64,000 bases of DNA from Tetraselmis striata. Its lineage: Eukaryota; Chlorophyta; Chlorodendrophyceae; Chlorodendrales; Chlorodendraceae. Below are positions 13,383 to 60,883 of this stretch, piece by piece (within the stretch, counting starts at the first letter, position 1; each line of letters opens with the position of its first letter). The notes below the pieces were generated by a model. The model worked only from the letters and a program-made list of their open reading frames with translations, did not search any database and was not told the DNA's origin. Position numbers and translations under genes: made by a program. The stretch spans positions 52,580-116,579 of the forward strand of contig VCJN01003129.1 of assembly GCA_006384855.1 (NCBI GenBank). The letters run 5' to 3'.

Positions 13383-13505
13383 TGTCGCTGCTGGCCGGCG
13401 GGCGGTGGCTCCATCGAAGTCGGCCGTCCTTTTTGATCCGGGGATCGTGAGCCTGCCATCACAGCGCCAGTCGCTTGAAGCTGGTGCTTGTAGTGTTCTG
13501 GCTCC

Positions 13506-13706: not shown

Positions 13707-14869
13707 GGGGGCCGACCGACTGGCCTCGCGTGCTGACGAGGGCCCGGCTGCCCTAAACAGCGCCCAATCAGACGGAGCAGTGAAGTCATGACTGCCCTAC
13801 CCGTATATAGCGAAGGGAATAAAAACAATGAAACAAGTGCCAGAAAGTATTGTACGCGAGTACCCGTATTGGGCCATAATGTGGGTACCAGCCAGGGGTA
13901 CAAAGGCAGTTTTAGGGTCGTACTACCTAAGGGTGGAGTTTTGCAGAGAGTTGCCCAGCGTCGCGACTTCTCTGCGCTCTCGCTCTCTGCTCAGCTCTTG
14001 CCGCTGCGCTCGGCAGTCACGGTCGAGAGTGGAAGCGCTGGTCGAAAGTAGAGCAGCGCTGGCAGCGCCTCACCTGACAGGTGATGGACCGCGTGGTCCT
14101 CTGCTCCAGGCAGGACCGCAGGAATAGCCGGGCGCGGCACAGACTTGCCTTCTGAAGCTGCCGGCACTGCAAAGGAGCGGCAGGGAGAAAAACACCGCGA
14201 CCCCTGTCGTCAGCGCTGGACAAATCCAACTAGCAGAAAACGACGCGAGGTGGAAAGACTCGGGAATGGGTGCAGGGGGCAAATAGCCAAGGGTACCAGT
14301 ACCTACGCTGCGCAGTCTACTCGCAAAGCAGCGTGCGCCGTGCTGATTAGTTGTGGGTTCCGCCGTAAATTGTCCCGTCCCGTCCCGTACCGTATTACGG
14401 CCAGTAGTGCGCGTTTCGTCCCGTCTGGTATGGTCTGTCTGCTCGTCTCAATTGTTCGATCGTACAGTCGATCGCTCAGTTCGATCGTTTCGCGTGGTCA
14501 GAGGCTAATAGCGTAGAGGCCTGACACAGCAGCCGGTCTTGGCAGATCTGCAAGTATCCACCTCGGCGGGAAGTGCTGACGCAGTGAGACCTGCTGCGGA
14601 CACCGCGATACCGCGGTTCCGGTGCGACTACCAAGGCTACCATCAGCAGTAGGTTGCTATGTGTAGGGACTCTCTAGTACCATCAGAAGCTGCGCGCGCT
14701 GGGTTCTGCTGGCGGGCGCGCGGATATCAGCAGTCCCGGACTGTCTGATTGCCGACTATCCGAGTACCGTATCTGTACAGGTATAAAGGACTTTAAATAA
14801 GGACCAATAGATTATTTATCCCCGCGTGCCTGTACGACCCGTAGTCGCTACCAGGCGCAATGATGTGCA
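13707..14869. other. No gene recognised
   Basis: Only short, featureless frames on both strands. TATATA at 13803-13808 (the sequence CCGTATATAGCG) is a possible minus-strand promoter element for the coiled-coil gene. Confidence 0.4.
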
Positions 14870-20500: not shown

Positions 20501-21900
20501 GGGCTGAGCCGGCGTCTGCAATGCGCTCGGCGGCCGACCTCCAAGCTATCCCGCATTACTCGGACTTCCCCTTGCACTCCATGCGGAAAGTACAGGAAAC
20601 CCTGAGCCACCGCATTCACACGGTCCGTTTCGCAAAGCTTGTTGCGCGTATGCCTACAAGCGGCCCTGACAGCAACCGCTTCCGAGGCCGCCTCTTACGC
20701 GCTGCGACGGCGTTCCTGGTGACTGATCCTCCAAGTGAGGGTCGCCTTGGTGAAGTCCGTGAGCGTTCCCCTGAGTACTACGATTCCATGTTTCGTGTTG
20801 CCGCTTGCCCCCCATTTGGCCTTCCGGCGGCTCCTATCCTCTCCCTTGGCGAGCCATGCTCTTGTATGTGCTTCTTGCTCCTTCTCGGTACAAGGTATGC
20901 TTGCCCGTTTTGAGGACGCTGGGGTGGAGTTCACTCCTTCAACTTGGGCGGTCGCATACGCTGATCACGCGGCACGTTGCTCTGGGGACGACTCCAATCA
21001 CGCCGCACACGAGTGGGCGGCACATGGCCTTTCCGACATTTGCCACGACGTGACGTCCGCGCTGGGCGTGAGTGTCCAGATCCTCACGGACCCGTCGGTG
21101 CTTGTTTCTCTCCCGAAGGGCAGCGACGGGCGGCTTGCCGATGTTGGGCTTTTTGGGTATGGCGGCATCCGCGGAAACACGGTTGCTGTCGATACCACCA
21201 TTGCCCCTATCCTCGGCGTGTCAACCTCGGATCCAACGACTGCTTTGCGGGCTGCAGAGCGCCGCAAAATCCAGAAGTATGACGAGGGTGTCCGAAACGC
21301 TGCCGGCATGCTTCGCTTTGTTCCTTTCGCCGTTTCCGAGTTTGGCTCGCTGGCCCCGCACGCCGAGGCTTTCTTGGTGGAGCTCGCGAAAGCTAGCGAA
21401 GCACGCACTGGCCAAAAAATCGGCCAGCTCTTGTCTGCGTGGCGCCGCCGTTTCTCCTTGCTCATCAACATGGCAGACAACGTTCTTGGCGGGGTCGCGG
21501 CCGCGCGTGCGGCACGTGATGGTGCTCCTGCGCCTGCGTCGCGTCGCTCGTCGGCATGTGTTGCTATGACCCGGGTCATTGGCTGCAAGCGTCCTCGCCG
21601 CGCCTGATAGCCTACCCCGGGGCGGGGGTTCCTTTAGTTCATGGCAGCTAAGTGACTTCGTGGTTCCCTTGGCTCCTTCTTGGTTCTTGGCTCCCTGTCC
21701 TCCTGCTCGACCTTGGTTTCAAGCTTATGTCTCTGTTTTGCTGGCAACCTTTCATAGTTGCTGCTAGTTCTGTTGTAGTGCGCTTTTGTGAAAGCCCTGA
21801 TGTAATTTAAACTACACCCCTTGGGATCGTTGGGATGGCGTATATCAATACTGTTATTCACTCCCCACCTCGGGCGCTTTCAGAACTAACCAGACTATCC
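17510..21900 (+). mobile_element. Non-LTR retrotransposon with restriction-like endonuclease (copy 1)
   Basis: The unit has a 5' leader with a poly(C) run (17805-17820), a broken ORF (17990-21607) and a 3' untranslated part to about 21840-21900. Part of the C-terminal ORF and the 3' tail recur as a second, minus-strand copy at 43150-43520 plus 51825-52530, which confirms it is a repeat family. The 3' regions of both copies share CCTTTCAT and a terminal TGATGTA phrase. The exact 5' end is not defined. Confidence 0.75.
17990..21607 (+). pseudogene. Reverse transcriptase / restriction-like endonuclease polyprotein, broken
   Basis: The protein would copy the element RNA into DNA at a nicked target. 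An ATG at 17990 starts a CxxC...HxxxC finger (residues 4-23). The RT core follows: VQLDDENAFNSFYR (motif A, near 19250), then RGAR-stop-GCVLGL (motif B, the TAG at 19442-19444 standing where Gln is usual), then FSDDVNL (motif C, near 19545) in another frame. A second TAG is at 20068-20070 and a further frame change falls between about 20810 and 20900. The last frame, to 21607, has a Cys/His cluster (RCSGDDSNHAAHEWAAHGL) followed by RLADVGLFGYGG...VAVDTTI, which fits the restriction-like endonuclease of R2/CRE-type elements. At least two stops and two frameshifts make it inactive. Confidence 0.75.
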
Positions 21901-43149: not shown

Positions 43150-43520
43150 ATATATCTACATCAGCCGTGCTATAACATATGCGCACCAATAGCAGGACCA
43201 AGCAAAAGCACTGATGAAAGGTTGTTGGCAAAAGTGACGAGATATCAGCATGAAACCAAGGCGCGGGTGAAGCAGAAGGCCGGGGAGCCAAGAACCAAGG
43301 AATATAAGAGCCACGGGAACCAAGAAGCCACCAAGACAGTCTTCAAGGAACCAAAGGGTCGAGGGAAACACTGAAAGTCAAGGAACGACCAGACTAAACC
43401 GAAGGGGAACATGAAACCAAATGGGACCACCGCCCAAGGGTGGGCCATTATACGCGGCGAGTGCGCTCGCTGCCGATGACCCGGGTCATAGCAACACAGG
43501 CTGACGAGCGACGTGCCGCA
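43150..43520 (-). mobile_element. Non-LTR retrotransposon copy 2, 3' part (split by transposon copy A)
   Basis: In reverse complement this matches the end of the ORF and the 3' untranslated region of copy 1 (21550-21840): GTTGCTATGACCCGGGTCAT, later a GGTTCTTGGCTCCC stretch and CCTTTCAT. It ends near 43148 with TGATGTAGATATATA. Its continuation is at 51825-52530. Confidence 0.8.
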
Positions 43521-44231
43521 CACTGTGAGATTCAGATGTGACATACAGGTGACGAAGCACTACTACTAGCGACTATTATTTATCCGTGAAGGCTGCTGCT
43601 GGTGGCGGCACGTCCATCCAGTTACGTGCGAGTACATCCGGCGTTATTGCCGGCGGGCGATAAATCCTTTTTGTCATCATTCTGGCAGTCGTACCAGCCC
43701 GGTGAAGCGTACATGGCACTGACGTACAAGGTACAAGGTTGTCCGTGTAGTACCGGGTAGTACGCGATATATTTATTACGCCGGTACCGGGGATGTAGTA
43801 CCCGGTACCCGGTACCCGGGCACGAACCCTAGTCGTCCTGTGGATAACTACGACTATTAGTACATGGGAGCGCAAATCGCAGCCGTACGTATTTGGTAAC
43901 ACTGGGGAATTTGCAGTACTAGTACTGCTGATCGGGCCTGCCAGCCGTCCGATCAAAGGTCATCAGATGGGCGGTTTGGCTGCCATGTTTTGCCAAAGAG
44001 TGCTCACGTTACATAAATATTCGCGAGGGGGAGGGCGGGGGCAGGCAGCGGTTTGCCGAAGAATGATTGAATTACAATATTCGCGACAGCTGCCATCGGG
44101 GGATGTGGCCCGGGGGGGGGGGGGGGGGGGGGGGCGGGGGGACCACGCCCGCCCCGCCCCCCCCCGCCCCCCCTCGCCGCCAGCCGCTCCCGCCTGGGGG
44201 GGGGGGGGGGGGGGGGTAAAGGGGGCGGGGG

Positions 44232-44459
44232 CTACTGCTTGTTCTTGTTCTTGCGTGCCCGGGGGACCCTCCGCTTCGACGATCTCGCTGCCTCCGCCTC
44301 CGCCTCCGCCTCCGCCTCCGCCTGCGCCTCCGACTCCGCCTCCGACTCCGCGACCGTCAGTTTCTTACCTCGGCGTTTCTTCACTGGCCTCTTCCGCTTC
44401 TTGTCATCCGTCAGTGTCTTCACCACCCCGGGAGGCTGTGCCGTCGACGACGCCGCCAT
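44232..44459 (-). CDS. Small charged protein in transposon copy A
   Basis: The ATG at 44459-44457 gives 75 residues: an N-terminal basic cluster (KKRKRPVKKRRGKK), an acidic Ala/Glu repeat (ESEAESEAQAEAEAEA) and a basic end (RRVPRARKNKNKQ). The basic clusters look like nuclear localisation signals. The copy in transposon B (53317-53544) is nearly identical, so the frame has been kept. It may be an exon of a longer gene, since a second frame upstream (44532-44780, FVRERRKAHLNAKA) is also conserved in B. No domain recognised. Confidence 0.45.
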   Translation of the reverse strand: MAASSTAQPPGVVKTLTDDKKRKRPVKKRRGKKLTVAESEAESEAQAEAEAEAEAEAARSSKRRVPRARKNKNKQ

Positions 44460-44838
44460 GAGCTTCCTTACCTTGGCGTCGGGACGCCCCCTGTGCCCAG
44501 ACACCCACAACAAGCCACAATCGTTTCGCCTTTAAGCGGCTGAGGATGCGGCCTCCTCGGCCACCACGAGTTGCGCCGCTGGCACTGTGGAAGCCTTGGC
44601 GTTGAGGTGGGCCTTACGGCGCTCCCGGACGAACCTGCGCGCGGCACAAGTTAGCCACGAGTGGGTGCGTGCTAATGCGGAGGATGGAGTGTTTTGTTGC
44701 GCGCCCACCTTGTCACGGGTTTCCTCATGTCTTTCTCGTCCTCCTCGATGCCGGCGGCGCGGACACGCGAGACAACAAGGCTCGCCGCCCACTTTTGCCC
44801 GGGGGGGCGAGGTCGGCCATGGCGCTGTGAGCGGTGAA

Positions 44839-44876
<38 letters not shown>

Positions 44877-45255
44877 CGGCCGAGGTGGAGAAACTAACAC
44901 CCAGTCGACGACCGCCTTCCGCAGCAGTCAACGACACATCGGAGGCGAGGAGCAGCGCGCCACTACTATTTATATGCACGTATTGTCAAGAGCTAGTCGG
45001 TGCGGCATTGTGTCGGTGTAATTTCGCAATGTTTATTGTTGAAGTAGCACGGCGTAATGGATACGGCGAGTGAATCCGGGATAATGTGTGCGACGAATGT
45101 GCGCGCGCAGCGGTGTGCGGCGGTGTGCGGCGGTGTGCGGCGGTGTGCACCGATGTTAATATAGTGTGAATATTATATCGGCCGTAGACGATCAGGTCTG
45201 GCAGCACCGCCCGTGCTTGTAAATAAGCGACAATGGGTCTAGTCTCCCGCTAGTC

Positions 45256-46300
45256 TGTGCACCGCAAGTGCACTCCGCAAGCCTCGCCTCCATCCGCGTC
45301 GGAACCGGTAGTAAGTGTTGTTGTGTGCGCACATCGTGACAACATTAAACGGTGGCAATTGCAATTATTAGCGGTGGATAATGTGAAGGCGTTTTCGAAA
45401 TCGACAGAGAATGAGGCGGTGCTGGCGGAGTGCATTGGCGGTGCACAGAATAGCGTGTTGCTGGGGTTTTGGCTGCATCGGACGCCGTATTCCCACCCAT
45501 CCGGCACGGAATGTCCGGTTTTCACACATTTGTGTGTTAATAAAGCAGTGTGAATATTACGCGTCTTTTACGCCGGGTGGATGGGCATCCGGCGTCCGAT
45601 GCACCCCAATTATTTGCAGCACGCTACTCTACGCACCCCCAACGCACTCCGCAAGCCTCGCCTCCATCCGCGTCGGAACCGGTAGTAAGTGTTGTTGTGT
45701 GCGCACATCGTGACAACATTACACGGCAATTGCAATTAGCGGTGGACAATGTGAAGGCGTTTTCGAAATCGACAGAGAATGTGGCGGTGCTGGCGGAGTG
45801 CATTGGCGGTGCACAGAATAGCGTGTTGCTGGGGTTTTGGCTGCATCGGACGCCGTATTCCCACCCATCCGGCACGGAATGTCCGGTTTTCACACATTTG
45901 TGTGTTAATAAAGTGTGAATATTACGCGTCTTTTACGCCGGGTGGGTGGGCATCCGGCGTCCGATGCACCCCAATTATTTGCAGCACGCTACTCTACGCA
46001 CCCCCAACGCACTCCGCAAGCCTCGCCTCCATCCGCGTCGGAACCGGTAGTAAGTGTTGTTGTGTGCGCACATCGTGACAACATTACACGGTGGCAATTG
46101 CAATTAGCGGTGGGTAATGTGAAGGCGTTTTCGAAATCGACAGAGAATGAGGCGGTGCTGGCGGAGTGCATTGGCGGTGCACAGAATAGCGTGTTGCTGG
46201 GGTTTTGGCTGCATCGGACGCCGTATTCCCACCCATCCGGCACGGAATGTCCGGTTTTCACACATTTGCGTGTGAATATATATAGTGTGAATATTACGTA
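45256..46300 (+). repeat. About 370-bp tandem repeat, about 3 units (copy A)
   Basis: The anchor CCTCCATCCGCGTCGGAACC recurs at intervals of about 371 and 365 bases. Each unit also has GTGTGAATATTACG...CGTCTTTTACGC and ACGGAATGTCCGGTTTTCAC. Units are open on both strands for about 90 codons, but the frames shift between units, so I do not call them genes. Transposon copy B has five units. Confidence 0.9.
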
Positions 46301-47386
46301 GGCGTCTTTTACGCTGGGTGGATGGGCATCCGGCGTCCGATGCACCCCGAATCTCACCAACACGCTACTCTACGCACCCCCAACGCATTCCGCCAGCCCC
46401 CCCTCTTTCCGCGCAGGTCCTACGTTCCATTGTATGTATATACATACGTACATGTATTGCTCCGAAACCAGCCCAAACTTTATGAGTGCACAAGTGTAAA
46501 TGGGGGGGGGGGGGGGGGGTGGGGGGGGGGGATGTGGCGGCGGGGCATCCACTCACACATACCCCAGCGATGCATGACAAATATTACATGCCGTGGCGGG
46601 TCGGCGGGCCGACCCGGCGGGCCGACCCGGCGGGGGGGGGGGGGGGGGGGGGGCGTCTATTCAACTACACGTGCGACAGTGTCGTTTCGTGGAGCAGTAT
46701 ATGTGCCCGGCCTCATTTATACCGCCCCCTACCTGCGCTGCATGGTCTACCCCTAAGAATTACTTAGCACAAACCGTCATTACTTAATAGGAACCTAGCA
46801 CAGCCAGGCTTATATGCCCGCTTTCCCGATCAACTTCTACGCACTTTCCGTCCCTCAACCGCCGGACATGGGGGTTAAGCCGCCAGCCTCGGCAGTTGCT
46901 TAGCCAGACTTGGCATCCCGTACCGTGTCCATGGCTTCGCAGCTCTGCCGCTGGCACACGCCGAGTCCGGCGCTTGCTGCCGCGGGGTTGCGCACGCATG
47001 CACGCACGGTAATACGCCGCCGACGCCGCCACGCTTACTTCCACCACCTTCGCCAGCCGCAGCTTCGCACGCCTTTCCGCCGACATACGAAACGCACGAA
47101 TCCCCCCCCGTCCCCGCGTCATGTATATTATATTCGAGGCGACTATGCGGGGCGCAGCACACGCCGCGGCGTGGGTCGGCGGAGCGACAGGCGGCGGGAG
47201 CCCTAATGGCCGGGCAGTATCCACACCCACACAGGCACCGCCGCTCACCTCCGACGCGGATGAACCGCCTCCCAAAGGAAACATGCCGGTTGGTGGTAAG
47301 CCCAGCAGGCGTGCGTGGGGTGCCGGCGCCGGTACTGGTGCGACGGAGCTGTCGCGTCAGGAACCGCACCGCATGTGGAGCAACAC

Positions 47387-48016
47387 ATGGCGGTGCCGGC
47401 CCCACCTATGTCTAGGGCCACCTCCTCACAACACCCCGCCACGACGGCGTCGGCCACCGCCGACGGCGCCGTTGCGGGGGGGGACGCCCTGCCAGGCGAC
47501 GATGATGCGCCTGGTGCGCCGCGTCAGGAGGCAGAGGAGGCCGTGGTCGAGGCGACTGATCGGGCTGAGGGGGTTGTCGAGGCGAGCGAGGCTGCGCTCG
47601 CGCCACCCGCCCCGCAGCCACCTGCGGGACATGCCGACTTGCTCGTCGCCATGTTGACCGGAGCACTACGAGCAGTGGCGGGAGGCGGCCACATGCACTA
47701 TCATGTGCGTGTCCTGGCCGGACGCCCGTCATGCGTGGACTGCGGCCAACGGACGGACTGGGAGTGTTGCTGCGACGGCACCCCGGCTTTGTGCGGCCCC
47801 AAGTACCCATGCATGGCGACCCATCAGCGGGCAGTCCCCTGCCCGACCACGGCCACGAAGAGGGCGGAGTTCCGCCATGTCAGGGACGCGTTCCACGACG
47901 CGACTCGCGCCGCCGTGTGTGAGGCTTCCGAGAAGGCACGCGCGGCTGGTAGGGTGCGCAGGGTGAGGCGGCGGACGGCCCAGGAGCTGAAGGAGAGCGA
48001 GACATGCCGTCAGTGA
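47387..48016 (+). CDS. Zinc-ribbon protein in transposon copy A
   Basis: An ATG at 47387 opens 209 codons. The first half is Ala/Pro/Glu-rich (APRQEAEEAVVEATDRAEGV). Near residue 118 there is a Cys cluster: CVDCGQRTDWECCCDG, then LCGPKYPCMATH, spaced like the C-terminal zinc ribbon of piggyBac-type and related transposases (CX2C...WXCXC...LC...C...H). The tail is basic (RVRRVRRRTAQELKE). Copy B has an extra G in a G-run and lacks 26 bases just before the ribbon, so its frame is broken. This makes A the better copy. A DNA-binding role in transposition is inference. A poly(C) tract follows at 48198. Confidence 0.5.
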   Translation: MAVPAPPMSRATSSQHPATTASATADGAVAGGDALPGDDDAPGAPRQEAEEAVVEATDRAEGVVEASEAALAPPAPQPPAGHADLLVAMLTGALRAVAGGGHMHYHVRVLAGRPSCVDCGQRTDWECCCDGTPALCGPKYPCMATHQRAVPCPTTATKRAEFRHVRDAFHDATRAAVCEASEKARAAGRVRRVRRRTAQELKESETCRQ

Positions 48017-48060
48017 GGTCGGGCGCAATGTCATTGGGTGGGGCACACGGACGTGTAACA

Positions 48061-48365
48061 CTTGCACTTTGCGCGTACTGCTGGGTTACATCCAGGCTGC
48101 GTCACACTATGCAACCGGAAAGGCTGCGTTGCTACTGCAAACAATGCGACGCCTCACTCTGTAGCAACCGCTGCCGCGCCTATCCCACAGCCGCTGCCCC
48201 CCCCCCCCCCCCCCCCCCCCCGCGCGGGATCCCCGCCATCAGCAGCTTGCACTTGCACTTTGCGCGTACTGCTGGGTTACATCCAGGCGGCGTCACACCG
48301 GAAAGGCTGCGTTGCCACTGCAAACGATGCTACGCCTCACTCGGTAGCAACCGCTGCCCCGCCCA
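48061..48365 (+). repeat. Two about 118-bp direct repeats
   Basis: The sequence from CTTGCACTTTGCGCGTACTG to GTAGCAACCGCTGCC occurs at 48061-48178 and 48249-48365 with about 10 differences, separated by a poly(C) tract. Copy B has a single hybrid of the two at 58479-58596. Confidence 0.85.
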
Positions 48366-48965
48366 TCCCACTCGGGATGCTGAGAGCAGCTAAAGGGCAC
48401 CGGGGGCGGGGCAAGAGGGAGCAGGGCCAATGATTGTGGAAGAGCGGGGACCCGCTTGCATGCCATCGTATTATATCTTGCACAATATCTGTTGCTGCAC
48501 TCATATCTCACATCACTAGCTTAGCTATAGTGATTCCCCCCCCCCCCCCCCCCCCCGCACCGCGTACGCACAAGCCTGGGTATACGCATCAACTGCCCGC
48601 CGGGATGAGAAACTGGTATTGGTAGTGTGTCTGTGGGGTGGAGGGGGGGGGGCAAAAGAGCTGCCAATTGCTGCCAAGCTGGTGCGTTACATTGGGGCAG
48701 GCGCTGGGCAGACAATTGGGGCTCGCTTCAGAGCATTGTCTAGTGCCTATGCGGCTGCGCCGCCTCCGCCGCATGCAGACTCTGCGGGCTCACCAGCACC
48801 GCCACCTCAGTCATGCGGCCCTGCATCCCGCAGCCCGCCGCCGTCAGCCAGATCAGAGGTATCCAGAAGCCAGTGCTGGGGTTGTTGCGGCATGACCGCA
48901 TAGTTTTCAGCGGCTGCCGTCCACAGCTTGTAATGCATCCCTTTCCGCCGATTCCGCTGTATGCG

Positions 48966-49775
48966 CTGTCTTGGCGCCGCGCTGCCCCGGCCGCCGCTGT
49001 CTTGGCGCCGCGCTGCCCCGGCCGCCGCTGTCCTGGCGCCGCGCTGCCCCGGCCGCCGCGCCTTGGCGCCGCGCTGCCCCGGCCGCCGCGCCTTGGCGCC
49101 GCGCTGCCCCGGCCGCCGCGCCTTGGCGCCGCGCTGCCCCGGCCGCCGCGCCTTGGCGCCGCGCTGCCCCGGCCGCCGCTGTCTTGGCGCCGCGCTGCCC
49201 CGGCCGCCGCTGTCTTGGCGCCGCGCTGCCCCGGCCGCCGCGCCTTGGCGCCGCGCTGCCCCGGCCGCCGCTGTCTTGGCGCCGCGCTGCCCCGGCCGCC
49301 GCTGTCTTGGCGCCGCGCTGCCCCGGCCGCCGCGCCTTGGCGCCGCGCTGCCCCGGCCGCCGCGCCTTGGCGCCGCGCTGCCCCGGCCGCCGCGCCTTGG
49401 CGCCGCGCTGCCCCGGCCGCCGCGCCTTGGCGCCGCGCTGCCCCGGCCGCCGCGCCTTGGCGCCGCGCTGCCCCGGCCGCCGCTGTCTTGGCGCCGCGCT
49501 GCCCCGGCCGCCGCTGTCTTGGCGCCGCGCTGCCCCGGCCGCCGCTGTCTTGGCGCCGCGCTGCCCCGGCCGCCGCTGTCTTGGCGCCGCGCTGCCCCGG
49601 CCGCCGCTGTCTTGGCGCCGCGCTGCCCCGGCCGCCGCTGTCTTGGCGCCGCGCTGCCCCGGCCGCCGCGCCTTGGCGCCGCGCTGCCCCGGCCGCCGCG
49701 CCTTGGCGCCGCGCTGCCCCGGCCGCCGCGCCTTGGCGCCGCGCTGCCCCGGCCGCCGCGCCTTGGCGCCGCGCG
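48966..49775 (+). repeat. 30/31-bp GC-rich minisatellite, about 27 units (copy A)
   Basis: The unit is CTTGGCGCCGCGCTGCCCCG followed by GCCGCCGCGC (30 bases) or GCCGCCGCTGT (31 bases). The two unit types occur in blocks. Copy B has only about 7 units (58608-58835), all of the 30-base type. Confidence 0.95.
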
Positions 49776-51251
49776 GGGTATCGAGTCCTCCCCTCCCTAG
49801 TGAGCGCGTCCACCTGCGCCTTGCGCTCGGGGCCGTCCTCCTCCGTCACCACATTCTGCAACCCCCACCGCGTGACGAACCACGCAGCTCCTTGCATGCG
49901 CTTGTACATGTGCCCAAGCACCGCCTAGGGACGCGAAGCTCCTTCTCGGTCATGATCGCCTTCACCCGGGCCTCCTCGAGCAGCGGACCGGCGTTAAGAA
50001 TGGAAAACGTTTCCATGTGGTGCAAGCAGTCCTCCATGACCCAGCCGGACTGCACCGTCACCTTGCCTGACCCTGCAGTCATGGAGGGGAATGCCGTCAC
50101 GCCCACGCCCACGCCCACGCCCACGCCCGGGGGGGGGGGGGGGGGGGTTACCTTTCGATTCTTGGACACTGCAAACGAAGGGCGCAACCCGCGTTCAAAG
50201 TTGCTGGGTATCGGGACTAAAGCCTGGCGCCGGTCTTCCTGCTTCATAGCTCGGAATCCAATGTGGCCCTGCACGGTGACAAATTTCCTCCAGAAGTCCC
50301 TTCCCAAGCCAAAAAAAAACAGGTGGAACGGCGCGAGGGGGAAGAGGTTGATCATGCTGACATAGCCCAGGACCACATGCACATGGCACACGCCATGGCA
50401 GCCAGTGTTCTGCTTGGCCTCCGCCAGCCGGGTTGTGTTGAACGCACGCCGGGCAAGGTGCGTGATTCACTGGACAAGTCATCGCCTTGATGGACGGTTA
50501 CCAAGCGAGCCTCCCCGTCCGCATCCACATGGGGGTGCTCCTGGGCAGCCGCCATAGCCTCCACAACCTGCCACGCCGACCGGGCGGGTGCGTGTGATTC
50601 CATACAACCGCAGTTGAGTGGTGCCACCAGCACGCAGGCCGGGCCCACTCACCTCTGAACGCAGAAGGTCCACAATGTCACCGTCCTCGAAAACAGCGCG
50701 CCACTGGGTCGCCCCGCCGTAGTCCTCCAACACCCACTCGGTAACGACGCCGGTTATCACGCCGTAGTGCCATACTCCCCGGAACTTCTTGGCGATGACC
50801 TTCATGTAGAAGTCGCCGGGATCGCCTTTCCATATCACGCCCTCATCGCGGGTTCGACGCCCGCCGGCGGCCACGCAGGCGCGTCGATGTCCATACCGTC
50901 TTCGCCAACGGGGTCCTCCCCCACGCCCATCACATCGTCCACCTTCGAGCCGCCGTCGTCCGAGACCGGCGCCGGCGGGCCGTTTCCGACGGCTGCAGCT
51001 ACTCCTGCTGCCGCGCTTGTTGCTGCTGTTGCTGCTGCTGCTGCTGCCGCCCCTGCTGCTGCTGCTTGTGATAAGGCGGCCTTGCGGCGCAACTTAGCCG
51101 CACGCTTCAACGAGTGGCTACAGTTCGGGTATTTCCGGAAGTGCCGCTCTCGCGCCGTCCTTTCACTACTACCCGTCACGATGCCGTGGCAGTGCTTGCA
51201 TGTGTACACGCCATCCTTCGACACACTCGCTATCCATCCCTTTGCCGGCAT
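49770..51251 (-). pseudogene. BED-finger / tudor-like protein gene in transposon copy A
   Basis: An ATG at 51251-51249 starts MPAKGWIASVSKDG and a BED-like finger (CKHCHGIVTGSSERTARERH...C), then a poly-Ala stretch encoded by GCA repeats and an acidic linker. A one-base loss near 50845 shifts the frame. The next frame holds KKFRGVWHYGVITGVV and VFEDGDIVDLL, like the tudor/SAWADEE-type modules at the front of algal transposases, up to a GTGAGT donor at 50653. Downstream, 50152-50391 (FHLFFFGLGRDFWRKFVTVQ) ends at a GTAAC donor followed directly by poly(C). 49846-50096 (GWVMEDCLHHMETFSILNAG) continues towards the GC-rich array. I cannot identify a catalytic domain. It is a candidate transposase or accessory gene. 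Confidence 0.5.
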
Positions 51252-51824
51252 GCCTGCTGCCGCGCGCGGGGGGCGGGGGGGGGGGTTGAGAGTTGGGGTG
51301 GATGTAACCCACCACCGGCAGGCAACACAGATGCGAGTGCGCGGCTGTCCGCGCTTGATTCAACGGTGAGCGGCGGTGACCGTGAGGCGACCCCGTACTT
51401 CATGCGCGTGCTGGGGCGTTACACAATCATCAGCAGTTAGGGCGGCTGCATTAAAACGCGCACCTACGAACACCACCTACCGCCTACCACCTACCGTACC
51501 ACCTACATCCGCCCACACCTCCGCCCGTCGTGCCGCACATCGCGGCACACCGCGGCGATGTGCAGCGATGTGCAGCGAGTACTTGCAGCCGCCTGTACTT
51601 AGCCCGGGTACTCCGCGTCGGCGGGCGACACGCGAGCCCGCGTGCGCATATCAATTTGATGAAATTATGGAAACGAGAAATTCATATAGTACTTTACAGG
51701 TCGCGCGCGATAGTCGTCGCTACTGGGTATGAAATCCACGTCCCTCGTCCGTCCCGTATCGTCCCCGTATGTCGTCGTTCGTCACCAGTAGGGCACATTT
51801 ACGTCACATCTGAATCTCACAGTG

Positions 51825-52530
51825 GCAGGCGCGGGAGCCCCATCACGTGCCGTGCGCTCCGCCGCAACCCCGCCAAGAACGTTGTCTGCATGCGCCATGT
51901 TGATGAGCAAGGAGAAACGGCGGCGCCACGCAGACAACAGCTGGCCGATTTCTTGGCCGCTAGGTGTGCATGGGGCTAGCTGCGCTTTCGCGAGCTCCGC
52001 CGAGAAAGACTCAGCGTGCGAGGCCAGCGGGCCGAACTCGGACATGGCATCAAAGGGAACAATGCGAAGCATGTCAGCGGCGTTTCGGACACCTTCGTCG
52101 AACATCGGGATTTTGTGGCGCTCTGTGGCTCGCATTACAGTCGTTGGACGATCCGAGCTTGACTACACGCCGAGGAAAGGGCCAATGGTTGTGGTATCGA
52201 TAGCAAGCGTGTTCCCGCGGATAACACATACCCAAAAAGCCCAACATCGGCCGGCCGGCGCTGCCATTCGGAAGAGAAACAAGCACCAATGCGTCCGTGA
52301 GGATCTGGACACCCACGCCTAGGGCGGATGACTTAACGTCGTGGCAAACGTCGAAAAGGCCATGTGCCGCCCACTCATGTGCGGGATGATTGGAGTCGCC
52401 CCCACAGCAACGTGCTACGTGATCAGCGTACGCGATCGCCCAAGCCGATGGAGTGAACTCCACGCCGGCATCCTCAAAACGGGCCAGCATGCCTTGTAGG
52501 CTTGTACCGAGACGGAGCAAATATAAACTC
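51825..52530 (-). mobile_element. Non-LTR retrotransposon copy 2, 5' part (truncated)
   Basis: Minus-strand match to the endonuclease-domain end of copy 1: GMLARFEDAGVEFTPS (about 52470-52515), ARCCGGDSNHPAHEWAAHGL, and SAWRRRFSLLINMA (about 51900). It carries frameshifts. Similarity to copy 1 stops near 52530, as expected for a 5'-truncated insertion. The remaining 52531-52601 is unique. Its 3' part is at 43150-43520, beyond transposon A. Confidence 0.85.
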
Positions 52531-53316
52531 GGATAGCAATGGCCACGTTTCGAGCTGCAAATCATATCATGTGCTGGCTATACATAGTCTAATATGCCAC
52601 CCACTGTGAGATTCAGATGTGACATACGGGTGACGAAGCACTACCGTACCGGTACCACTATTATCCGTGAAAGCTGCTGCTGGTGGCGGCACGTCCATCC
52701 AGTTACGTGCGAGTACATCCGGCGTTATTGCCGGCGGGCGATAAATCCTTTTTGTCATCATTCTGGTAGTCGTACTAGCCCGGTAAATTGTTACATGGCA
52801 CTGACGTATAAGGTACAAGGTTGTCCGTGTAGTACCGGGTAGTACGCGATATATTTATTGAGCCGGTACCGGGTATCTAGTACCCGGTACCCGGTACCCG
52901 GGCGCGATGACGAGTCGTCGTGTGGATAACTACGACTATTAGTACATGGGAGCGCAAATCGCAGCCGTACTATTCGGTAACACTGGGGAATTTTGTGTAC
53001 ATTATAGCTAGTACTGCTGAACGGGCCTGCCAGCCGTCCGATCAAAGGTCATCAGATGGGCGGTTTGGCTGCCATGTTTTGCCAAAGATTGCTCACGTTA
53101 CATAAATATTCGCGAGGAGGAGGGCGGGGGCAGGCAGCGGTTTACCGAAGAATGTTTGAATTACAATATTCGCGACAGCTGCCATCGGGGAATGTGGCCC
53201 GGGGGGGGGGGGGGGGGGGCGGGCGGGGGTGGTCCCCCCGCCCCCCCCCCCCCCCCCCCCCCGCCGCCCGCCGCTCCCGCCGGGGGAGTGAGGGGAGGGG
53301 GGTAAGGGGGCGGGGG

Positions 53317-53544
53317 CTACTGCTTGTTCTTGTTCTTGCGTGCCCGGGGGACCCTCCGCTTCGACGATGTCGCTGCCTCCGCCTCCGCCTCCGCCTCCGC
53401 CTCCGCCTGCGCCTCCGACTCCGCCTCCGACTCCGCGACCGTCAGTTTCTTACCTCGGCGCTTCTTCACTGGCCTCTTCCGCTTCTTGTCATCCGTCAGT
53501 GTCTTCACCACCCCGGGAGGCTGTGCCGTCGACGACGCCGCCAT
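53317..53544 (-). CDS. Small charged protein in transposon copy B
   Basis: Counterpart of 44232-44459. ATG at 53544-53542, 75 residues with the same basic-acidic-basic layout. One visible change is a Thr for Arg before SSKRRVPRARKN. Conservation of the whole frame in two copies supports a real product. Confidence 0.45.
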   Translation of the reverse strand: MAASSTAQPPGVVKTLTDDKKRKRPVKKRRGKKLTVAESEAESEAQAEAEAEAEAEAATSSKRRVPRARKNKNKQ

Positions 53545-54739
53545 GAGCTTCCTTACCTTGGCGTCGGGACGCCTCCTGTGCCCGAGACGCCCACAACAAG
53601 CCACAATCGTTTCGCCTTTAAGCGGCTGAGGATGCGGCCTCCTCGGCCACCACGAGTTGCGCCGCTGGCACTGTGGAAGCCTTGGCGTTGAGGTGGGCCT
53701 TACGGCGCTCCCGGACGAACCTGCGCGCGGCACAAGTTAGCCACGAGTGGGTGCGTGCTAATGCGGAGGGTGGAGTGTTTTGTTGCGCGCCCACCTTGTC
53801 ACGCGTTTCCTCATGTCTTTCTCGTCCTCCTCGATGCCGGCGGCGCGGACACGCGAGACAACAAGGCTCGCCGCCCACTTTTGCCCGGGGGGCGAGGTCT
53901 GCCATGGCGCTGTGAGCGGTGAAGGGGCGTGGGGGGGGGGGGGGGGGGGGGGGGGGGGGGCGGCCGAGGTGGAGAAACTAACACCCAGTCGACGACCGCC
54001 TTCCGCAGCAGTCAACGAGCGACACATCGGAGGCGAGGAGCAGCGCGCCACTACTATTTATATGCACGTATTGTCAAGAGCTAGTCGGTGCGGCATTGTG
54101 TCGGTGTAATTTCGCAATGTTTATTGTTGAAGTAGCACGGCGTAATGAATACGCGGTTTCACCGAGTGAATCCGGGATAATATGTGCGGTAGGGCGCGCG
54201 TATATGTGCGCGACGAATGTGCGCGCGCAGCGTTGTGCGGCGGTGTGCGGCGGTGTGCGGCGGTGTGCACCGGTGTTAATATAGTGTGAATATTATATCG
54301 GCCGTAGACGATCGGGTCTGGCAGCACCGCCCGTGCTTGTAAATAAGCGACAATGGATCACGTCATGCTCCGGTTGTACTCCTACACTTCCTCCACTTTG
54401 GCGGGTGGGGGGGGGGCGGGGGGGGGGGGGGGGGGGGTCATGTCCTTATTACTTGCATCGGTGGACGTGCTGGATATGGAGGTCACCGGGCACATCGCGT
54501 GGTTTCGGAGCAGTTCATTCGCGCCTCCTCGTCTTGTTTGCAATCGTCGCCCTAATCCAATGCAGGGTGAGTAGCGGGACACTGTGCCCCCCCCCCCCCC
54601 CCGGGTTTATGTAAACAAATATCTAGCCGTGCATGCGCCGCAATCGGTACCCAATGAGCGGGGTATGCGACAGTGGTTTCGGAGCAGTGCAAGCATTCCG
54701 TGCGTGTGCACAAGCACGTACGACTGGGAATGAGGCGGG

Positions 54740-56730
54740 GGTTGCGGATGGAGTGCATTGGCGGTGCATAGAATAGCGTGTTCCTGGGGTTTTGGCTGCA
54801 TCAGACGCCGTATTCCCATCCATCCGGCACGGAATGTCCGGTTTTCACACATTTGTGTGTTAATATAGTGTGAATATTACGCGTCTTTTACGCCGGGTGG
54901 ATGGGCATCCGGCGTCCGATGCACCCCAAGTATTTACAGCACGCTACTCTACGCACCGCCAATGCACTCCGCAAGCCCCGCCTCCATCCGCGTCGGAACC
55001 GGTAGTAAGTGTTGTTGTGTGCGCACATCGTGACAACATTACACGGTGGCAATTGCAATTATTAGCGGTGGATAATGTGAAGGCGTTTTCGAAATCGACA
55101 GAGAATGAGGCGGTGCTGGCGGAGTGCATTGGCGGTGCATAGAATAGCGTGTTGCTGGGGTTTTGGCTGCATCGGACGCCGTATTCCCACCCATCCGGCA
55201 CGGAATGTCCGGTTTTCACACATTTGCGTGTGAATATAGTGTGAATATTACGCGTCTTTTACGCCGGGTGGATGGGCATCCGGCGTCCGATGCACCCCAA
55301 TTATTTGCAGCACGCTACTCTACGCACCGCCAGTGCACTCCGCAAGCCCCGCCTCCATCCGCGTCGGAACCGGTAGTAAGTGTTGTTGTGTGCGCACATC
55401 GTGACAACATTAGACGGTGGCAATTATTGCAATTATTACCGGTGGATAATGTGAAGGCGTTTTCGAAATCGACAGAGAATGAGGCGGTGCTGGCGGAGTG
55501 CATTGGCGGTGCATAGAATAGCGTGTTGCTGGGGTTTTGGCTGCATCGGACGCCGTATTCCCACCCATCCGGCACGGAATGTCCGGTTTTCACACATTTG
55601 TGTGTTAATATAGTGTGAATATTACGCGTCTTTTACGCCGGGTGGATGGGCATCCGGCGTCCGATGCACCCCAAGTATTTACAGCACGCTACTCTACGCA
55701 CCGCCAATGCACTCCGCAAGCCCCGCCTCCATCCGCGTCGGAACCGGTAGTAAGTGTTGTTGTGTGCGCACATCGTGACAACATTACACGGTGGCAATTG
55801 CAATTATTAGCGGTGGATAATGTGAAGGCGTTTTCGAAATCGACAGAGAATGAGGCGGTGCTGGCGGAGTGCATTGGCGGTGCATAGAATAGCGTGTTGC
55901 TGGGGTTTTGGCTGCATCGGACGCCGTATTCGCACCCATCCGGCACGGAATGTCCGGTTTTCACACATTTGCGTGTGAATATAGTGTGAATATTACGCGT
56001 CTTTTACGCCGGGTGGATGGGCATCCGGCGTCCGATGCACCCCAATTATTTGCAGCACGCTACTCTACGCACCGCCAGTGCACTCCGCAAGCCCCGCCTC
56101 CATCCGCGTCGGAACCGGTAGTAAGTGTTGTTGTGTGCGCACATCGTGACAACATTAGACGGTGGCAATTTATTGCAATTATTACCGGTGGATAATGTGA
56201 AGGCGTTTTCGAAATCGACAGAGAATGAGGCGGTGCTGGCGGAGTGCATTGGCGGTGCATAGAATAGCGTGTTGCTGGGGTTTTGGCTGCATCGGACGCC
56301 GTATTCCCACCCATCCGGCACGGAATGTCCGGTTTTCACACATTTGCGTGTTAATATAGTGTGAATATTACGCGTCTTTTACGCCGGGTGGATGGGCATC
56401 CGGCGTCCGATGCACCCCAATTATTTGCAGCACGCTACTCTACGCACCGCCAGTGCACTCCGCAAGCCCCGCCTCCATCCGCGTCGGAACCGGTAGTAAG
56501 TGTTGTTGTGTGCGCACATCGTGACAACATTACACGGTGGAAATTGCAATTATTAGCGGTGGATAATGTGAAGACGTTTTCGAAATCGACAGAGAATGAG
56601 GCGGTGCTGGCGGAGTGCATTGGCGGTGCATAGAATAGCGTGTTGCTGGGGTTTTGGCTGCATCGGACGCCGTATTCCCACCCATCCGGCACGGAATGTC
56701 CGGTTTTCACACATTTGCGTGTGAATATAG
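54740..56730 (+). repeat. About 373-bp tandem repeat, 5 units plus partial ends (copy B)
   Basis: The anchor CCTCCATCCGCGTCGGAACC recurs near 54980, 55352, 55726, 56100 and 56473 (steps of 372-374 bases). Units 1 and 3 share AAGTATTTACAG. Units 2 and 4 share AATTATTTGCAG together with an ATTAGACGG...ATTACCGG version. The array is therefore organised in dimers of about 746 bases. Confidence 0.9.
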
Positions 56731-56934
56731 TGTGAATATAGTACGCGTCTTTTACGCCGGGTGGATGGGCATCCGGCGTCCGATGCACCCCGAATCTCAC
56801 CAACACGCTACTCTACGCACCCCCAACGCACTCCGCCAGCCCCGCACAGGTCCTACGTTCCGTTGTATGTATATACATACGTACATGTACTGCTCCGAAA
56901 CCAGCCCAAACTTAATGAGTGCACAAGTGTAAAT

Positions 56935-56969
<35 letters not shown>

Positions 56970-57827
56970 TGTGGCGGCGGGGCATCCACTCACACATACC
57001 CCGGCGATGCATGACAGATATTACATGCCGTGGCGGGTCGGCGGGCCGACCCGGCGGGGGGTGGGGGGGGGGGGGGGGGGGGGGGGGGGTCTATTCAACT
57101 ACACGTGCCACAGTGTCGTTTCGTGGAGCAGTATATGTGCCCGGCCTCATTTATACCGCCCCCTACCTGCGCTGCATGGTCCACCCCTACGAATTACTTA
57201 GCACAAACCGCCATTACTTAATAGGAACCTAGCACAGCCAGGCTTATATGCCCGCTTTGCCGATCAACTTCTACGCACTTTCCGTCCCTCAACCGCCGGA
57301 CATGGGGGTTAAGCCGCCAGCCTCGGCAGTTGCTTAGCCAGACTTGGCATCCCGTACCGTGTCCATGGCTTCGCAGCTCTGCCGCCGGCACACGCCGAGT
57401 CCGGGCTTGCTGCCGCGGGGTTGCGCACGCATGCACGCACGGTAATACGCCGCCGACGCCGCCACGCTTACTTCCACCACCTTCGCCAGCCGCAGCTTCG
57501 CACGCCGTTCCGCCGACATACGAAACGCACGAATCCCCCCCCCCCCCCCCCCCCGTCCCCGCGTCATGTATAATATATTCGAGGCGACTATGCGGGGCGC
57601 AGCACACGCCGCGGCGTGGGTCGGCGGAGCGGCAGGCGGCGGGAGCCCTAATGGCCGGGCAGTATCGACACCCACACAGGCACCGCCGCTCACCTCCGAC
57701 GCGGATGAACCGCCTCCCAAAGGAAACATGCCGGTTGGTGGTAAGCCCAGCAGGCGTGGGGTGCCGGCGCCGGTACTGGTGCGACGGAGCTGTCGCGTCA
57801 GGAACCGCACCGCATGTGGAGCAACAC

Positions 57828-58432
57828 ATGGCGGTGCCGGCCCCACCTATGTCTAGGGCCACCTCCTCACAACACCCCGCCACGACGGCGTCGGCCACCG
57901 CCGACGGCGCCGTTGCGGGGGGGGGACGCCCTGCCAGGCGACGATGATGCGCCTGGTGCGCCGCGTCAGGAGGCGGAGGAGGCCGTGGTCGAGGCGACTG
58001 ATCGGGCTGAGGGGGTTGTTGAGGCGAGCGAGGCTGCGCTCGCGCCACCCGCCCCGCAGCCACCTGCGGGACATGCCGACTTGCTCGTCGCCATGTTGAC
58101 CGGAGCACTACGAGCAGTGGCGGGAGGCGGCCACATGCACTATCATGTGCGTGGACTGCGGCCAACGGACGGACTGGGAGTGTTGCTGCGACGGCACCCC
58201 GGCTTTGTGCGGCCCCAAGTACCCATGCATGGCGACCCATCAGCGGGCAGTCCCCTGCCCGACCACGGCCACGGTGAGGGCGGAGTTCCGCCATGTCAGG
58301 GACGCGTTCCACGACGCGACTCGCGCCGCCGTGTGTGAGGCTTCCGAGAAGGCACGCGCGGCTGGTGGGGTGCGCAGGGTGAGGCGGCGGACGGCCCAGG
58401 AGATGAAGGAGAGCGAGACATGCCGTCAGTGA
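57828..58432 (+). pseudogene. Zinc-ribbon protein in transposon copy B, broken
   Basis: It matches 47387-48016 but has 9 G instead of 8 in the run near 57916 and lacks 26 bases before the ribbon (near 58150). The ribbon itself (CVDCGQRTDWECCC) and basic tail are intact at 58145-58432 but out of frame with the N-terminal part. Confidence 0.6.
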
Positions 58433-58607
58433 GGTCGGGCGCAATGTCATTGGGTGGGGCACACGGACGTGTAACACTTGCACTTTGCGCGTACTGCTGG
58501 GTTACATCCAGGCGGTGTCACACTATGCAACCGGAAAGGCTGCGTTGCTACTGCAAACGATGCTACGCCTCACTCGGTAGCAACCGCTGCCCCGCCCATC
58601 CCACTCG

Positions 58608-58835
58608 CGTTGGCGCCGCGCTGCCCCGGCCGCCGCGCCTTGGCGCCGCGCTGCCCTGGCCGCCGCGCCTTGGCGCCGCGCTGCCCCGGCCGCCGCGCCT
58701 TGGCGCCGCGCTGCCCCGGCCGCCGCGCCTTGGCGCCGCGCTGCCCCGGCCGCCGCGCCTTGGCGCGCGCTGCCCCGGCCGCCGCGCCTTGGCGCCGCGC
58801 TGCCCCGGCCGCCGCGCCTTGGCGCCGCGCTGGGT
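58608..58835 (+). repeat. 30-bp GC-rich minisatellite, about 7 units (copy B)
   Basis: Same unit as 48966-49775 (CTTGGCGCCGCGCTGCCCCG...). One unit has a 1-base loss (near 58765) and another a C-to-T change. It is fused directly to CCCATCCCACTCG. Confidence 0.95.
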
Positions 58836-60277
58836 CTCGAGTCCTCCCCTCCCTGGTGAGCGCGTCCACCTGCGCCTTGCGCTCGGGGCCGTCCTCCTCC
58901 GTCACCACATTCTGCAACCCCCACCGCGTGACGAACCACGCAGCTCCTTGCATGCGCTTGTACATGTGCCCAAGCACCGCCTGGGGACGCGAAGCTCCTT
59001 CTCGGTCATGATCGCCTTCACCCGGGCCTCCTCGAACAGCGGACCGGCGTTAAGAATGGAAAACGTTTCCATGTGGTGCAAGCAGTCCTCCATGACCCAG
59101 CCGGACTGCACCGTCACCTTGCCTGACCCTGCAGTCATGGAGGGGAATGCCGTCACGCCCACGCCCACGCCCACGCCCGGGGGGGGGGGGGGGGGGTTAC
59201 CTTTCGACTTCTTGGACACCGCAAACGAAGGGCGCAACCCGCGTCCAAAGTTGCTGGGTATCGGGACTAAAGCCTGGCGCCGGTCTTCCTGCTTCATAGC
59301 TCGGAATCCAATGTGGCCCTGCACGGTGACAAATTTCCTCCAGAAGTCCCTTCCCAAGCCAAAAAAAAACAGGTGGAACGGCGCGAGGGGGAAGAGGTTG
59401 ACCATGCTGACATAGCCCAGGACCACATGCACATGGCACACGCCATGGCAGCCAGTGTTGTGCTTGGCCTCCGCCAGCCGGGTTGTGTTGAACGCACGCC
59501 GGGCAAGGTGCGTGATTCACTGGACAAGTCATCGCCTTCATGGACGGTTACCAAGCGAGCATCCCCGTCCGCATCCACAGGGGGGTGCTCCTGGGCAGCC
59601 GCCATAGCCTCCACAACCTGCCACGCCGACCGGGCGGGTGCGTGTGATTCCATACAACCGCAGTTGAGTGGTGCCACCCGCACGCAGGCCGGGCCCACTC
59701 ACCTCTGAACGCAGAAGGTCCACAATGTCACCGTCCTCGAAAACAGCGCGCCACTGGGTCGCCCCGCCGTAGTCCTCCAACACCCACTCGGTAACGACGC
59801 CGGTTATCACGCCGTAGTGCCATACTCCCCGGAACTTCTTGGCGATGACCTTCATGTAGAAGTCACCGGGATCGCCTTTCCGTATCACGCCCTCATCGGC
59901 AGCTTCCACGTCCGCCGGCGGCCACGCAGGCGCGTCGATGTCCATACCGTCTTCGCCAACGGGGTCCTCCCCCACACCCATCACATCGTCCTCCGAGACC
60001 GGCGCCGGCGGGCCGTTTCCGACGGCTGCAGCTACTCCTGCTGCCGCCCCTGCCGCTGCTGCTGCTACTGCTGCCGCCCTGCTGCTGCTGCTTGTAATAA
60101 GGCGGCCTTGCGGTGCAACTTAGCCGCACGCTTCAACGAGTGGCTACAGTTCGGGTATTTCCGGAAGTGCCGCTCTCGCGCCGTCCTTTCACTACTGCCC
60201 GTCACGATGCCGTGGCAGTGCTTGCATGTGTACACGCCATTCTTCGACACACTCGACATCCATCCCTCTCCCGGCAT
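58830..60277 (-). pseudogene. BED-finger / tudor-like protein gene in transposon copy B
   Basis: Counterpart of 49770-51251. An ATG at 60277-60275 starts MPGEGWMSSVSKNG and the same CKHCH finger. Here the frame breaks in the GCA-repeat/poly-Ala stretch (near 60080-60090). The part that is broken in A (the join of the acidic linker to KKFRGVWHYGV) is intact in B, running to the donor at 59703. Downstream exons parallel copy A. Confidence 0.5.
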
Positions 60278-60574
60278 GCCTGCTGCCGCGCGCGCGCGGG
60301 GGGGGGGGGGGGGGGGGGGGGTTGAGAGTTGGGGTGGATGTAGCCCACCACCGGCAGGGAGCACAAATGCGAGTGCGCGGCTGTCCGCGCTTGGTTCAGC
60401 GGTGAGCGGCGGTGACCGCCAGGCGACCCCGTACTTCATGCGCGTGCTGGGGCGTTACACAATCATCAGCAGTTAGGGCGGCTGCATTAAAACGCGCACC
60501 TACGAACACCACCTACCGCCTACCACCTACCGTACCACCTACATCCGCCCACACCTCCGCCCGTCGTGCCGCAC

Positions 60575-60593
60575 CTGTCTCTTATACACATCT
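60575..60593. other. Tn5/Nextera mosaic-end adapter sequence (assembly artefact)
   Basis: CTGTCTCTTATACACATCT is the 19-bp Tn5 mosaic end used in Nextera libraries. In transposon copy A the matching place (about 51536) has no such insert. Sequence before it matches A closely. After it, up to about 60860, there are many single-base indels, as in an uncorrected read. Confidence 0.95.
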
Positions 60594-60883
60594 CCGCACA
60601 CGCGGGGTAGCGATGTGCAGCGATGGCAGCGAGTACGTGCCAAGCCGCCTTACTTAGCCCAGGGTACTCCGCGTCGGCGGGCGACACGCGAGCCGCGTGC
60701 GCCATATCAATTTGATGGAAATTATGGAAACGAGAAATTCATTATAACTTTACATGTCGCGCCGAGATTTAGTCGTCGCTAATGGGGATGAAATCAACGT
60801 CCCTCGTCCGTCCCGTATCGTCCCCGACATGTCGTCGTTCGTCACCCGTAGGGCACATTACGTCACATCTGAATCTCACAGTG

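What the first reader, a model, noticed from the sequence alone, without database searches (positions are those of the whole stretch)
43518..51827. 8.3-kb CACTG-ended transposon inside a retroelement, with the empty site present in the same window
GCA flanks both ends. Joining the flanks recreates the non-LTR sequence as seen intact near 21535-21537 in copy 1 (reverse complement). This proves a clean insertion with a 3-bp duplication and orders events: retroelement copy 2 first, transposon A later.
Basis: seen in the sequence. Interest (0 to 1): 0.75.

Follow-up and report, generated by a model that had tools for sequence, protein, structure and literature searches.

The report
Deletion-derived CACTA-like transposon in Tetraselmis
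The 8.3-kb sequence is a recent, clean insertion of a DNA transposon that has lost its own working enzyme and is probably moved by a rarer 15.9-kb relative in the same green alga, a well-known way for such elements to spread.

Summary
Element A is 43521-51824 (8304 bp). It has identical 22-bp terminal inverted repeats (CACTGTGAGATTCAGATGTGAC) and GCA on both sides. The unfilled site is in copy 1 of the host repeat at 21535-21537, and 40 of 40 scored genomic places match the joined flanks.

The host is almost certainly the green alga Tetraselmis striata. The exact repeat end occurs 1868 times in its assembly (0 in the reversed control). Of 21 copies with both ends read, 17 have a duplication of exactly 3 bp and 4 have none.

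A 15,859-bp relative with the same ends and a 3-bp duplication carries an Ulp1/C48-protease-like gene and a transposase with CACTA-type motifs. A is a rearranged deletion derivative of such an element. It lacks the protease and the transposase's catalytic core and C-terminus. Copy B (52602-60883) shares the main junctions, so one derivative was probably amplified, to somewhere near a thousand copies.

The best reading is a non-autonomous EnSpm/CACTA-like element mobilised in trans. Superfamily placement rests on ends, duplication length and motifs read by eye. Pfam does not recognise the transposase and the structure model was unusable. It is a new member of a known kind.

The parts
43518..43520 (.). 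left target-site duplication GCA
   Evidence: empty-site comparison
51825..51827 (.). right target-site duplication GCA
43521..43542 (+). 22-bp terminal inverted repeat, left end
   Evidence: 1868 exact occurrences genome-wide, 0 in reversed control
51803..51824 (-). 22-bp terminal inverted repeat, right end
43521..51824 (-). transposon A, 8304 bp, non-autonomous; strand given is that of the transposase remnants
45270..46413 (+). 368-bp tandem repeat, about 3 units in A (5.6 in the 15.9-kb relative and in B)
47300..48013 (+). 238-aa ORF with a Cys-rich C-terminal part, remnant of the 3' end of the plus-strand gene whose first ORF in the 15.9-kb relative is Ulp1/C48-protease-like; an MMETSP transcript encodes a 99% identical protein
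48964..49774 (.). 30-bp minisatellite of variable length (about 7 to 58 units among 20 copies), lying where the transposase C-terminal exons are in the relative
49777..50455 (-). transposase remnant, the stretch following the catalytic core; aligns to relative 10883-11598
   Evidence: by reading
50464..51550 (-). transposase remnant, N-terminal exons with a CxxC zinc-finger-like and a Tudor-like stretch (by eye), reading frame broken; aligns to relative 12950-14037
52602..60883 (-). copy B, 8282 bp, same family and same main deletion junctions, about 93-95% identical to A in the long alignments, no target-site duplication (ACC / CTT)
43214..43520 (-). host repeat copy 2, part left of A
51825..52520 (-). 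host repeat copy 2, part right of A
20875..21755 (+). host repeat copy 1, holding the empty site at 21535-21537

Best explanation
A is a non-autonomous cut-and-paste DNA transposon of the EnSpm/CACTA type (CMCT group) in Tetraselmis striata. It arose by internal deletion and rearrangement of a 15.9-kb element that encodes the transposase and an Ulp1-like protease. Shown: the ends, the 3-bp duplication, the empty site, the shared ends of the transposase-bearing element, and the absence of the catalytic core from A. Inferred: the transposase made by full copies binds the common 22-bp ends, cuts A out and inserts it at staggered cuts of 3 bp, whose repair makes the duplication. One deletion derivative was amplified recently to near a thousand copies, and one of these landed in repeat copy 2.
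For: Ends and duplication. Full-length relative G000:C1870:319398-335256: exact 22-bp repeats at both ends and duplication CGT. It has an 829-aa open transposase frame and a C48-peptidase-like ORF (PF02902, E 5.6e-4, 20.3 bits, just under the 20.7 cut-off). Map of A and B on it with shared main junctions. 66 listed genomic places hold at least 171 of 242 residues of the region deleted in A, some with stop codons inside. Transposase motifs conserved with P0212, a relative 44% identical in the pairwise alignment. Recent amplification: 18 copies, median pairwise identity 99.43%, a sample drawn from the best matches.
Against: Pfam does not recognise the transposase (six frames of A). The genome search with PF02992 found nothing, though its control was void. 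The AlphaFold2 model was unusable (mean pLDDT 36.5). Of the H(3-4)H motif the second His is missing in the T. striata protein. Four of 21 copies lack a duplication. A scan of viral contigs found no relative of the transposase. No transposition was observed.
Confidence: 0.82

Rival explanations
1. The same cut-and-paste mechanism, but the transposase belongs to another lineage of the CMCT group (for example Chapaev3, Plavaka or Lanisha) or to an undescribed sister lineage, not to EnSpm/CACTA proper.
For: No Pfam match for the transposase; incomplete H(3-4)H motif. PMC12730594 (passages) says CMCT lineages mostly share CA..TG ends and make 2-5 bp duplications, so ends alone do not decide.
Against: CAC..GTG ends with 3-bp duplication are what that paper uses to call a family EnSpm. 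PlavakaB termini there are CATCA..TGATG and PlavakaA TGT..ACA, which differ from these. A large element with an Ulp1-like region has precedent in grapevine CACTAs (PMC2528002, passages).
Confidence: 0.2
2. A is autonomous and makes its own transposase from spliced exons.
For: A holds pieces of the transposase gene and a transcribed 238-aa ORF.
Against: The catalytic core (relative 11599-12949) and the C-terminal exons (9670-10882) are absent from A and B; the N-terminal frame is broken in A compared with the relative; nothing relevant in Pfam.
Confidence: 0.02
3. The copies spread by segmental duplication or recombination rather than by transposition.
For: 4 of 21 copies lack a duplication; A and B lie 777 bp apart in the same orientation.
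Against: 17 of 21 copies have a triplet duplicated at exactly 3 bp, with differing flanks; unfilled sites exist.
Confidence: 0.02
4. A is not a passive passenger: its Cys-rich ORF, kept in most copies and transcribed, has a function of its own such as a regulator of transposition or silencing.
For: The 238-aa ORF is open in 17 of 20 aligned copies, and one more has it within a 334-aa ORF; an MMETSP transcript encodes it. Between A and B the stretch 46721-48120 is 98-100% identical while the outer 400 bases at the left end are 92-94%. Against B and L018 alone the ORF has 3 nonsynonymous and 3 synonymous changes, 4.3 nonsynonymous expected.
Against: Copies are too young for an open frame to mean much. 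Over all 19 comparisons the changes fit no clear constraint (7 nonsynonymous, 5 synonymous, 8.7 nonsynonymous expected). The ORF lacks the protease end of the gene. Gene conversion could also even out a stretch.
Confidence: 0.1

Closest known systems
EnSpm/CACTA transposons of plants, e.g. grapevine Cactavine families (PMC2528002, passages read)
   Same: Large elements (10-25 kb), 3-bp duplications where given, deleted copies beside transposase-bearing ones, and an ULP1-like region in some families
   Different: Longer perfect terminal repeat (22 bp against 5-8 in the four grapevine rows seen); ends CACTG rather than CACTA; transposase not found by Pfam; many more copies of one deletion derivative
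EnSpm and Plavaka families of the CMCT group in fungi (PMC12730594, passages read)
   Same: CAC..GTG ends and 3-bp duplications (EnSpm); C(2)C motif after the second D; accessory gene carried along
   Different: Accessory gene here is Ulp1-like, not TET/JBP; second His of H(3-4)H missing in the T. striata protein
dSpm-type deletion derivatives of maize En/Spm (recalled, no call)
   Same: Internally deleted copies that keep both ends and part of the transposase gene and depend on a full element
   Different: Here one single derivative, itself 8 kb with an added minisatellite, appears to make up most of the family

Membership tests
EnSpm/CACTA | Termini CAC..GTG | tested here: met
   CACTGTG..CACAGTG at both ends of A, B, 18 fetched two-ended copies (one, L021, reads CACTATG at its left end) and the 15.9-kb relative
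EnSpm/CACTA | 3-bp target-site duplication | tested here: met
   17 of 21 two-ended copies exactly 3 bp, 4 none, 0 with 2 or 4-8 bp
EnSpm/CACTA | DDE transposase encoded by family members with the same ends | tested here: inconclusive
   15.9-kb element encodes a protein with TxDGF, WVxDxQGRRKI and ELWMENLMGxLK stretches conserved in P0212; assignment of D, D and E is by eye
EnSpm/CACTA (CMCT) | C(2)C motif between second D and E | tested here: met
   GCPWC, first Cys 19 residues after the D of WVxDxQGRRKI, in both T. striata and P0212; D and E taken by eye
EnSpm/CACTA (CMCT) | H(3-4)H motif between second D and E | tested here: inconclusive
   P0212 has HLFYH; T. striata has HLCFL, so only the first His
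EnSpm/CACTA | Sequence or fold similarity to known CACTA transposases | tested here: inconclusive
   No transposase family in Pfam for 10 gene models and the 829-aa frame; PF02992 not found in the genome, control void; PDB sequence search no relevant hit; AlphaFold2 model unusable
KDZ (Kyakuja-Dileera-Zisupton) | KDZ transposase domain PF18758 | tested here: inconclusive
   Not found in the genome, but the control rang in no genome; 3-bp duplication does not fit the 8-bp of Zisupton (PMC12730594 passages)
Non-autonomous deletion derivative | Keeps ends, lacks catalytic region of a named full-length relative | tested here: met
   Map of A and B on C1870:319398-335256

The most novel reading that the evidence does not exclude
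The 15.9-kb element represents an undescribed lineage of the CMCT transposase group in green algae. It combines an Ulp1-like protease, a zinc-finger-plus-Tudor-like front on the transposase and at least two further ORFs. Its main propagating form is not the coding element but one rearranged 8-kb derivative that makes up several percent of the genome.
Probability: 0.3. Interest if true: 0.5.

Novelty: new member of a known kind. Interest (0 to 1): 0.33.

Why it matters
The family is young and numerous, and coding and defective partners with the same ends sit in one algal genome. That makes it a good natural test of trans-mobilisation and a possible insertion tool for Tetraselmis. It also warns that hundreds of gene models in the T. 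striata annotation look like fragments of this transposon: the member counts of the 63 clusters sum to 631, five of them in the one cluster that also holds the transcript.

Tried and rejected
Pfam scan of A in six frames with stops read as X: one weak match (SAMP, E 0.08), nothing relevant. Pfam on 8 single ORFs at a loose threshold: only weak matches without meaning. PDB sequence search with the 238-aa ORF and with the transposase: no relevant hit. PF02992 and PF18758 in the own genome: no match, but the controls rang in none of 14 genomes, so this shows nothing.

I first took the N-terminal part of gene model P0032 for part of another transposon, because 12 of 12 fetched loci (2.2-3.4 kb each) showed no ends. 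The map of the 15.9-kb element showed that it lies within the element's own plus-strand gene.

Searching for ends with other neighbouring bases counted 7 and 147 ends; the 8 looked at were the same family. An older copy (L045+L049) was the same element with a foreign insertion, not a coding one. AlphaFold2 on the transposase (14 sequences) gave mean pLDDT 36.5 and was not used for a fold search. A scan of viral contigs found no relative of the transposase. The one gene model with a strong Pfam match, P0087 (DUF7869), looks like a fusion: only its last stretch resembles this family.
Full report
OBSERVATION. The element runs from 43521 to 51824 (8304 bp) and is flanked by GCA at 43518-43520 and 51825-51827. 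Its two ends are identical over 22 bases in inverted orientation and diverge after that. The left flank aligns to copy 1 of the interrupted repeat at 21643-21535 and the right flank at 21537-20875. The alignments overlap by exactly three bases, which are the single GCA at 21535-21537. A 300-base query made of the joined flanks matched 40 of 40 scored places (1664 candidates) on both sides of the join at 84-88%. So the insertion is clean and the unfilled site is real.

HOST. The window lies in a 224-Mb assembly of 2903 contigs without a name. Proteins predicted in the Tetraselmis striata genome (jgi Tetstr1, TSEL names) match the element's ORF at up to 99% over 88% of its length and 100% over shorter stretches, so the host is taken to be that alga. 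This is an inference from sequence identity.

FAMILY. The exact 22-mer occurs 994 times forward and 874 times reverse, 0 in the reversed control; with up to two mismatches 1221 and 1110, again 0 in the control. At two ends per copy this is about 930 to 1170 copies. At 8.2 kb each that would be roughly 3.4-4.3% of the assembly (my arithmetic; full-length copies, other derivatives and single ends are included). In the first 100 places listed I picked out by hand 28 plus/minus pairs 6.1-8.9 kb apart. Two wider pairs on contig C142 (13.0 and 13.9 kb) are also in that list. I fetched 20 of the 40 scored copies (1323 candidates); 18 had both ends within the fetched stretch. With A, B and the full-length relative, 17 of 21 have a duplication of exactly 3 bp. 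None has a duplication of 2 or of 4-8 bp, and 4 have none: L012, L018, L025 and B. The 18 fetched two-ended copies all have A's general structure, 7.5-8.9 kb long. A and 17 of them (L018 and B left out) have a median pairwise identity of 99.43%, range 98.76-99.87%. The sample was drawn from the best matches and is biased towards copies like A. Length differences come largely from a 30-bp minisatellite of about 7 to 58 units.

WHAT IS INSIDE. Six frames of A give no relevant Pfam family. A test for constraint between copies showed none clearly. A few ORFs with few changes fell below my loose flag of 0.75 of the expected nonsynonymous changes, among them the 238-aa ORF in the two-copy comparison (3 against 4.3 expected), not in the comparison with all copies (7 against 8.7). 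Between A and B, inner windows are up to 98-100% identical and the left end 92-94%; constraint or gene conversion could each explain this. Protein searches showed what the pieces are. The plus-strand ORF 47300-48013 is a Cys-rich protein annotated over and over in T. striata and present in an MMETSP transcript. The minus-strand piece 50464-51550 matches the N-terminal part of larger predicted proteins, and 49777-50455 corresponds to a later part of them. Their relatives in the T. striata gene set run up to 1274 residues. The middle of these proteins is missing from A. A search of the genome with that middle part listed 66 places with at least 171 of 242 residues, some with stop codons inside (150 of 293 candidates were scored).

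THE FULL-LENGTH RELATIVE. One such place, on contig C1870, was read end to end: 319398-335256, 15,859 bp. It has the exact 22-bp repeat at both ends and duplication CGT. A second transposase-bearing place, C279, has the exact repeat 3.3 kb from the catalytic exon on the right-end side; its other end was not read. In A's orientation the relative holds plus-strand coding stretches that begin with a C48-peptidase-like ORF (PF02902, E 5.6e-4, 20.3 bits against a cut-off of 20.7) and end with the Cys-rich ORF; gene model P0032 joins the later part of these. It also holds a minus-strand transposase gene with an 829-residue open frame and two further ORFs: 322 aa on the plus strand and 231 aa on the minus strand.

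THE DERIVATION OF A. A aligns to the relative in seven main blocks: A 1-885, 888-1271, 1272-1629, 1730-4703, 6257-6935, 6944-8030 and 8036-8304 against relative 1-886, 985-1368, 1839-2192, 6696-9669, 10883-11598, 12950-14037 and 15579-15859. What lies between is missing: among it the protease ORF, the catalytic core of the transposase (11599-12949), its C-terminal exons (9670-10882) and the 322-aa ORF. Part of the missing stretch before 6696 is extra units of the tandem repeat. Copy B has the junctions 886/985, 1368/1839 and 11598/12950 exactly and the one at about 14030/15579 closely, but keeps more of the relative before the tandem repeat, from 5318. A and B therefore most likely descend from one deletion derivative, which gained the minisatellite and was amplified. 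The four junctions I looked at show short novel bases at some and no clear repeat at others; I draw no mechanism from them.

MECHANISM. Shown: the ends, the duplication, the empty site, the common ends of coding and non-coding copies, and the absence of the catalytic core from A. Inferred: the transposase of full copies excises A at its 22-bp ends and inserts it at a 3-bp stagger.

CLASSIFICATION. A relative of the transposase from an unnamed source, P0212 (44% identical over the pairwise alignment; 41% in the search table), keeps TxDGF, WVxDxQGRRKI, GCPWC and NLHSAVCR..ACGHP..ELWMENLMGxLK. [quoted passage not shown] C(2)C is met. H(3-4)H is complete in P0212 but lacks the second His in T. striata. 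PMC2528002 (passages) describes grapevine CACTAs of 10-25 kb with 3-bp duplications where given and ULP1-like regions in some families. Against this, Pfam recognises the transposase in none of the gene models scanned (P0087's DUF7869 lies outside the shared part) nor in the 829-residue frame, the PF02992 genome search had a void control, and the structure model was unusable. I therefore call the element EnSpm/CACTA-like and give full membership as probable, not proven.

PRINT STATUS. Searches for 'Tetraselmis striata, genome, transposable' (10 papers), 'Tetraselmis striata, draft genome, annotation' (13, 10 listed), 'Tetraselmis, CACTA' (4) and 'Tetraselmis, transposase' (21, 12 listed) showed no paper whose title or abstract start describes such a family (listings only).

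HOST REPEAT. The interrupted sequence has 40 scored places (2145 candidates) at 95-100% over about 880 bases, copy 1 itself included. Upstream of the shared part of copy 1, ORF 17699-19441 reads by eye like a reverse transcriptase, but Pfam finds nothing.

Noticed in passing
window 52602-60883: Second copy of the same transposon, same orientation, 777 bp after A, without target-site duplication (ACC / CTT) and more diverged.
   Followed up: partly
window 47300-48013 and T. striata gene models: Hundreds of annotated T. striata genes look like fragments of this transposon; member counts of the 63 clusters sum to 631, and several models seem fused with neighbouring elements (P0059, P0062, P0087, P0216).
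   Followed up: no
L012, L018, L025 and window copy B: Four of 21 two-ended copies have no duplication; recombination between copies or flank deletion would explain it but was not tested.
   Followed up: no
L045 with L049 (G000:C1369): An older copy carries an insertion of about 1.8 kb near its left end with an ORF resembling an LTR-retroelement integrase and chromodomain (read by eye).
   Followed up: no
G000:C142:88885-101914 and 117723-131576: Pairs of exact ends 13.0 and 13.9 kb apart, possibly other long family members.
   Followed up: no
ends followed by GC, e.g. L048, L054: 147 of 1868 exact ends are followed by a different dinucleotide (GC in 98 of the 100 listed); one of them (C279) is an end of a transposase-bearing copy.
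   Followed up: partly
window 62406-63151: Array of diverged tandem repeats, copies 76-80% alike (self-comparison).
   Followed up: no
relative C1870 element, ORFs of 322 aa (+) and 231 aa (-): Two further long ORFs in the 15.9-kb element with no identified function.
   Followed up: no
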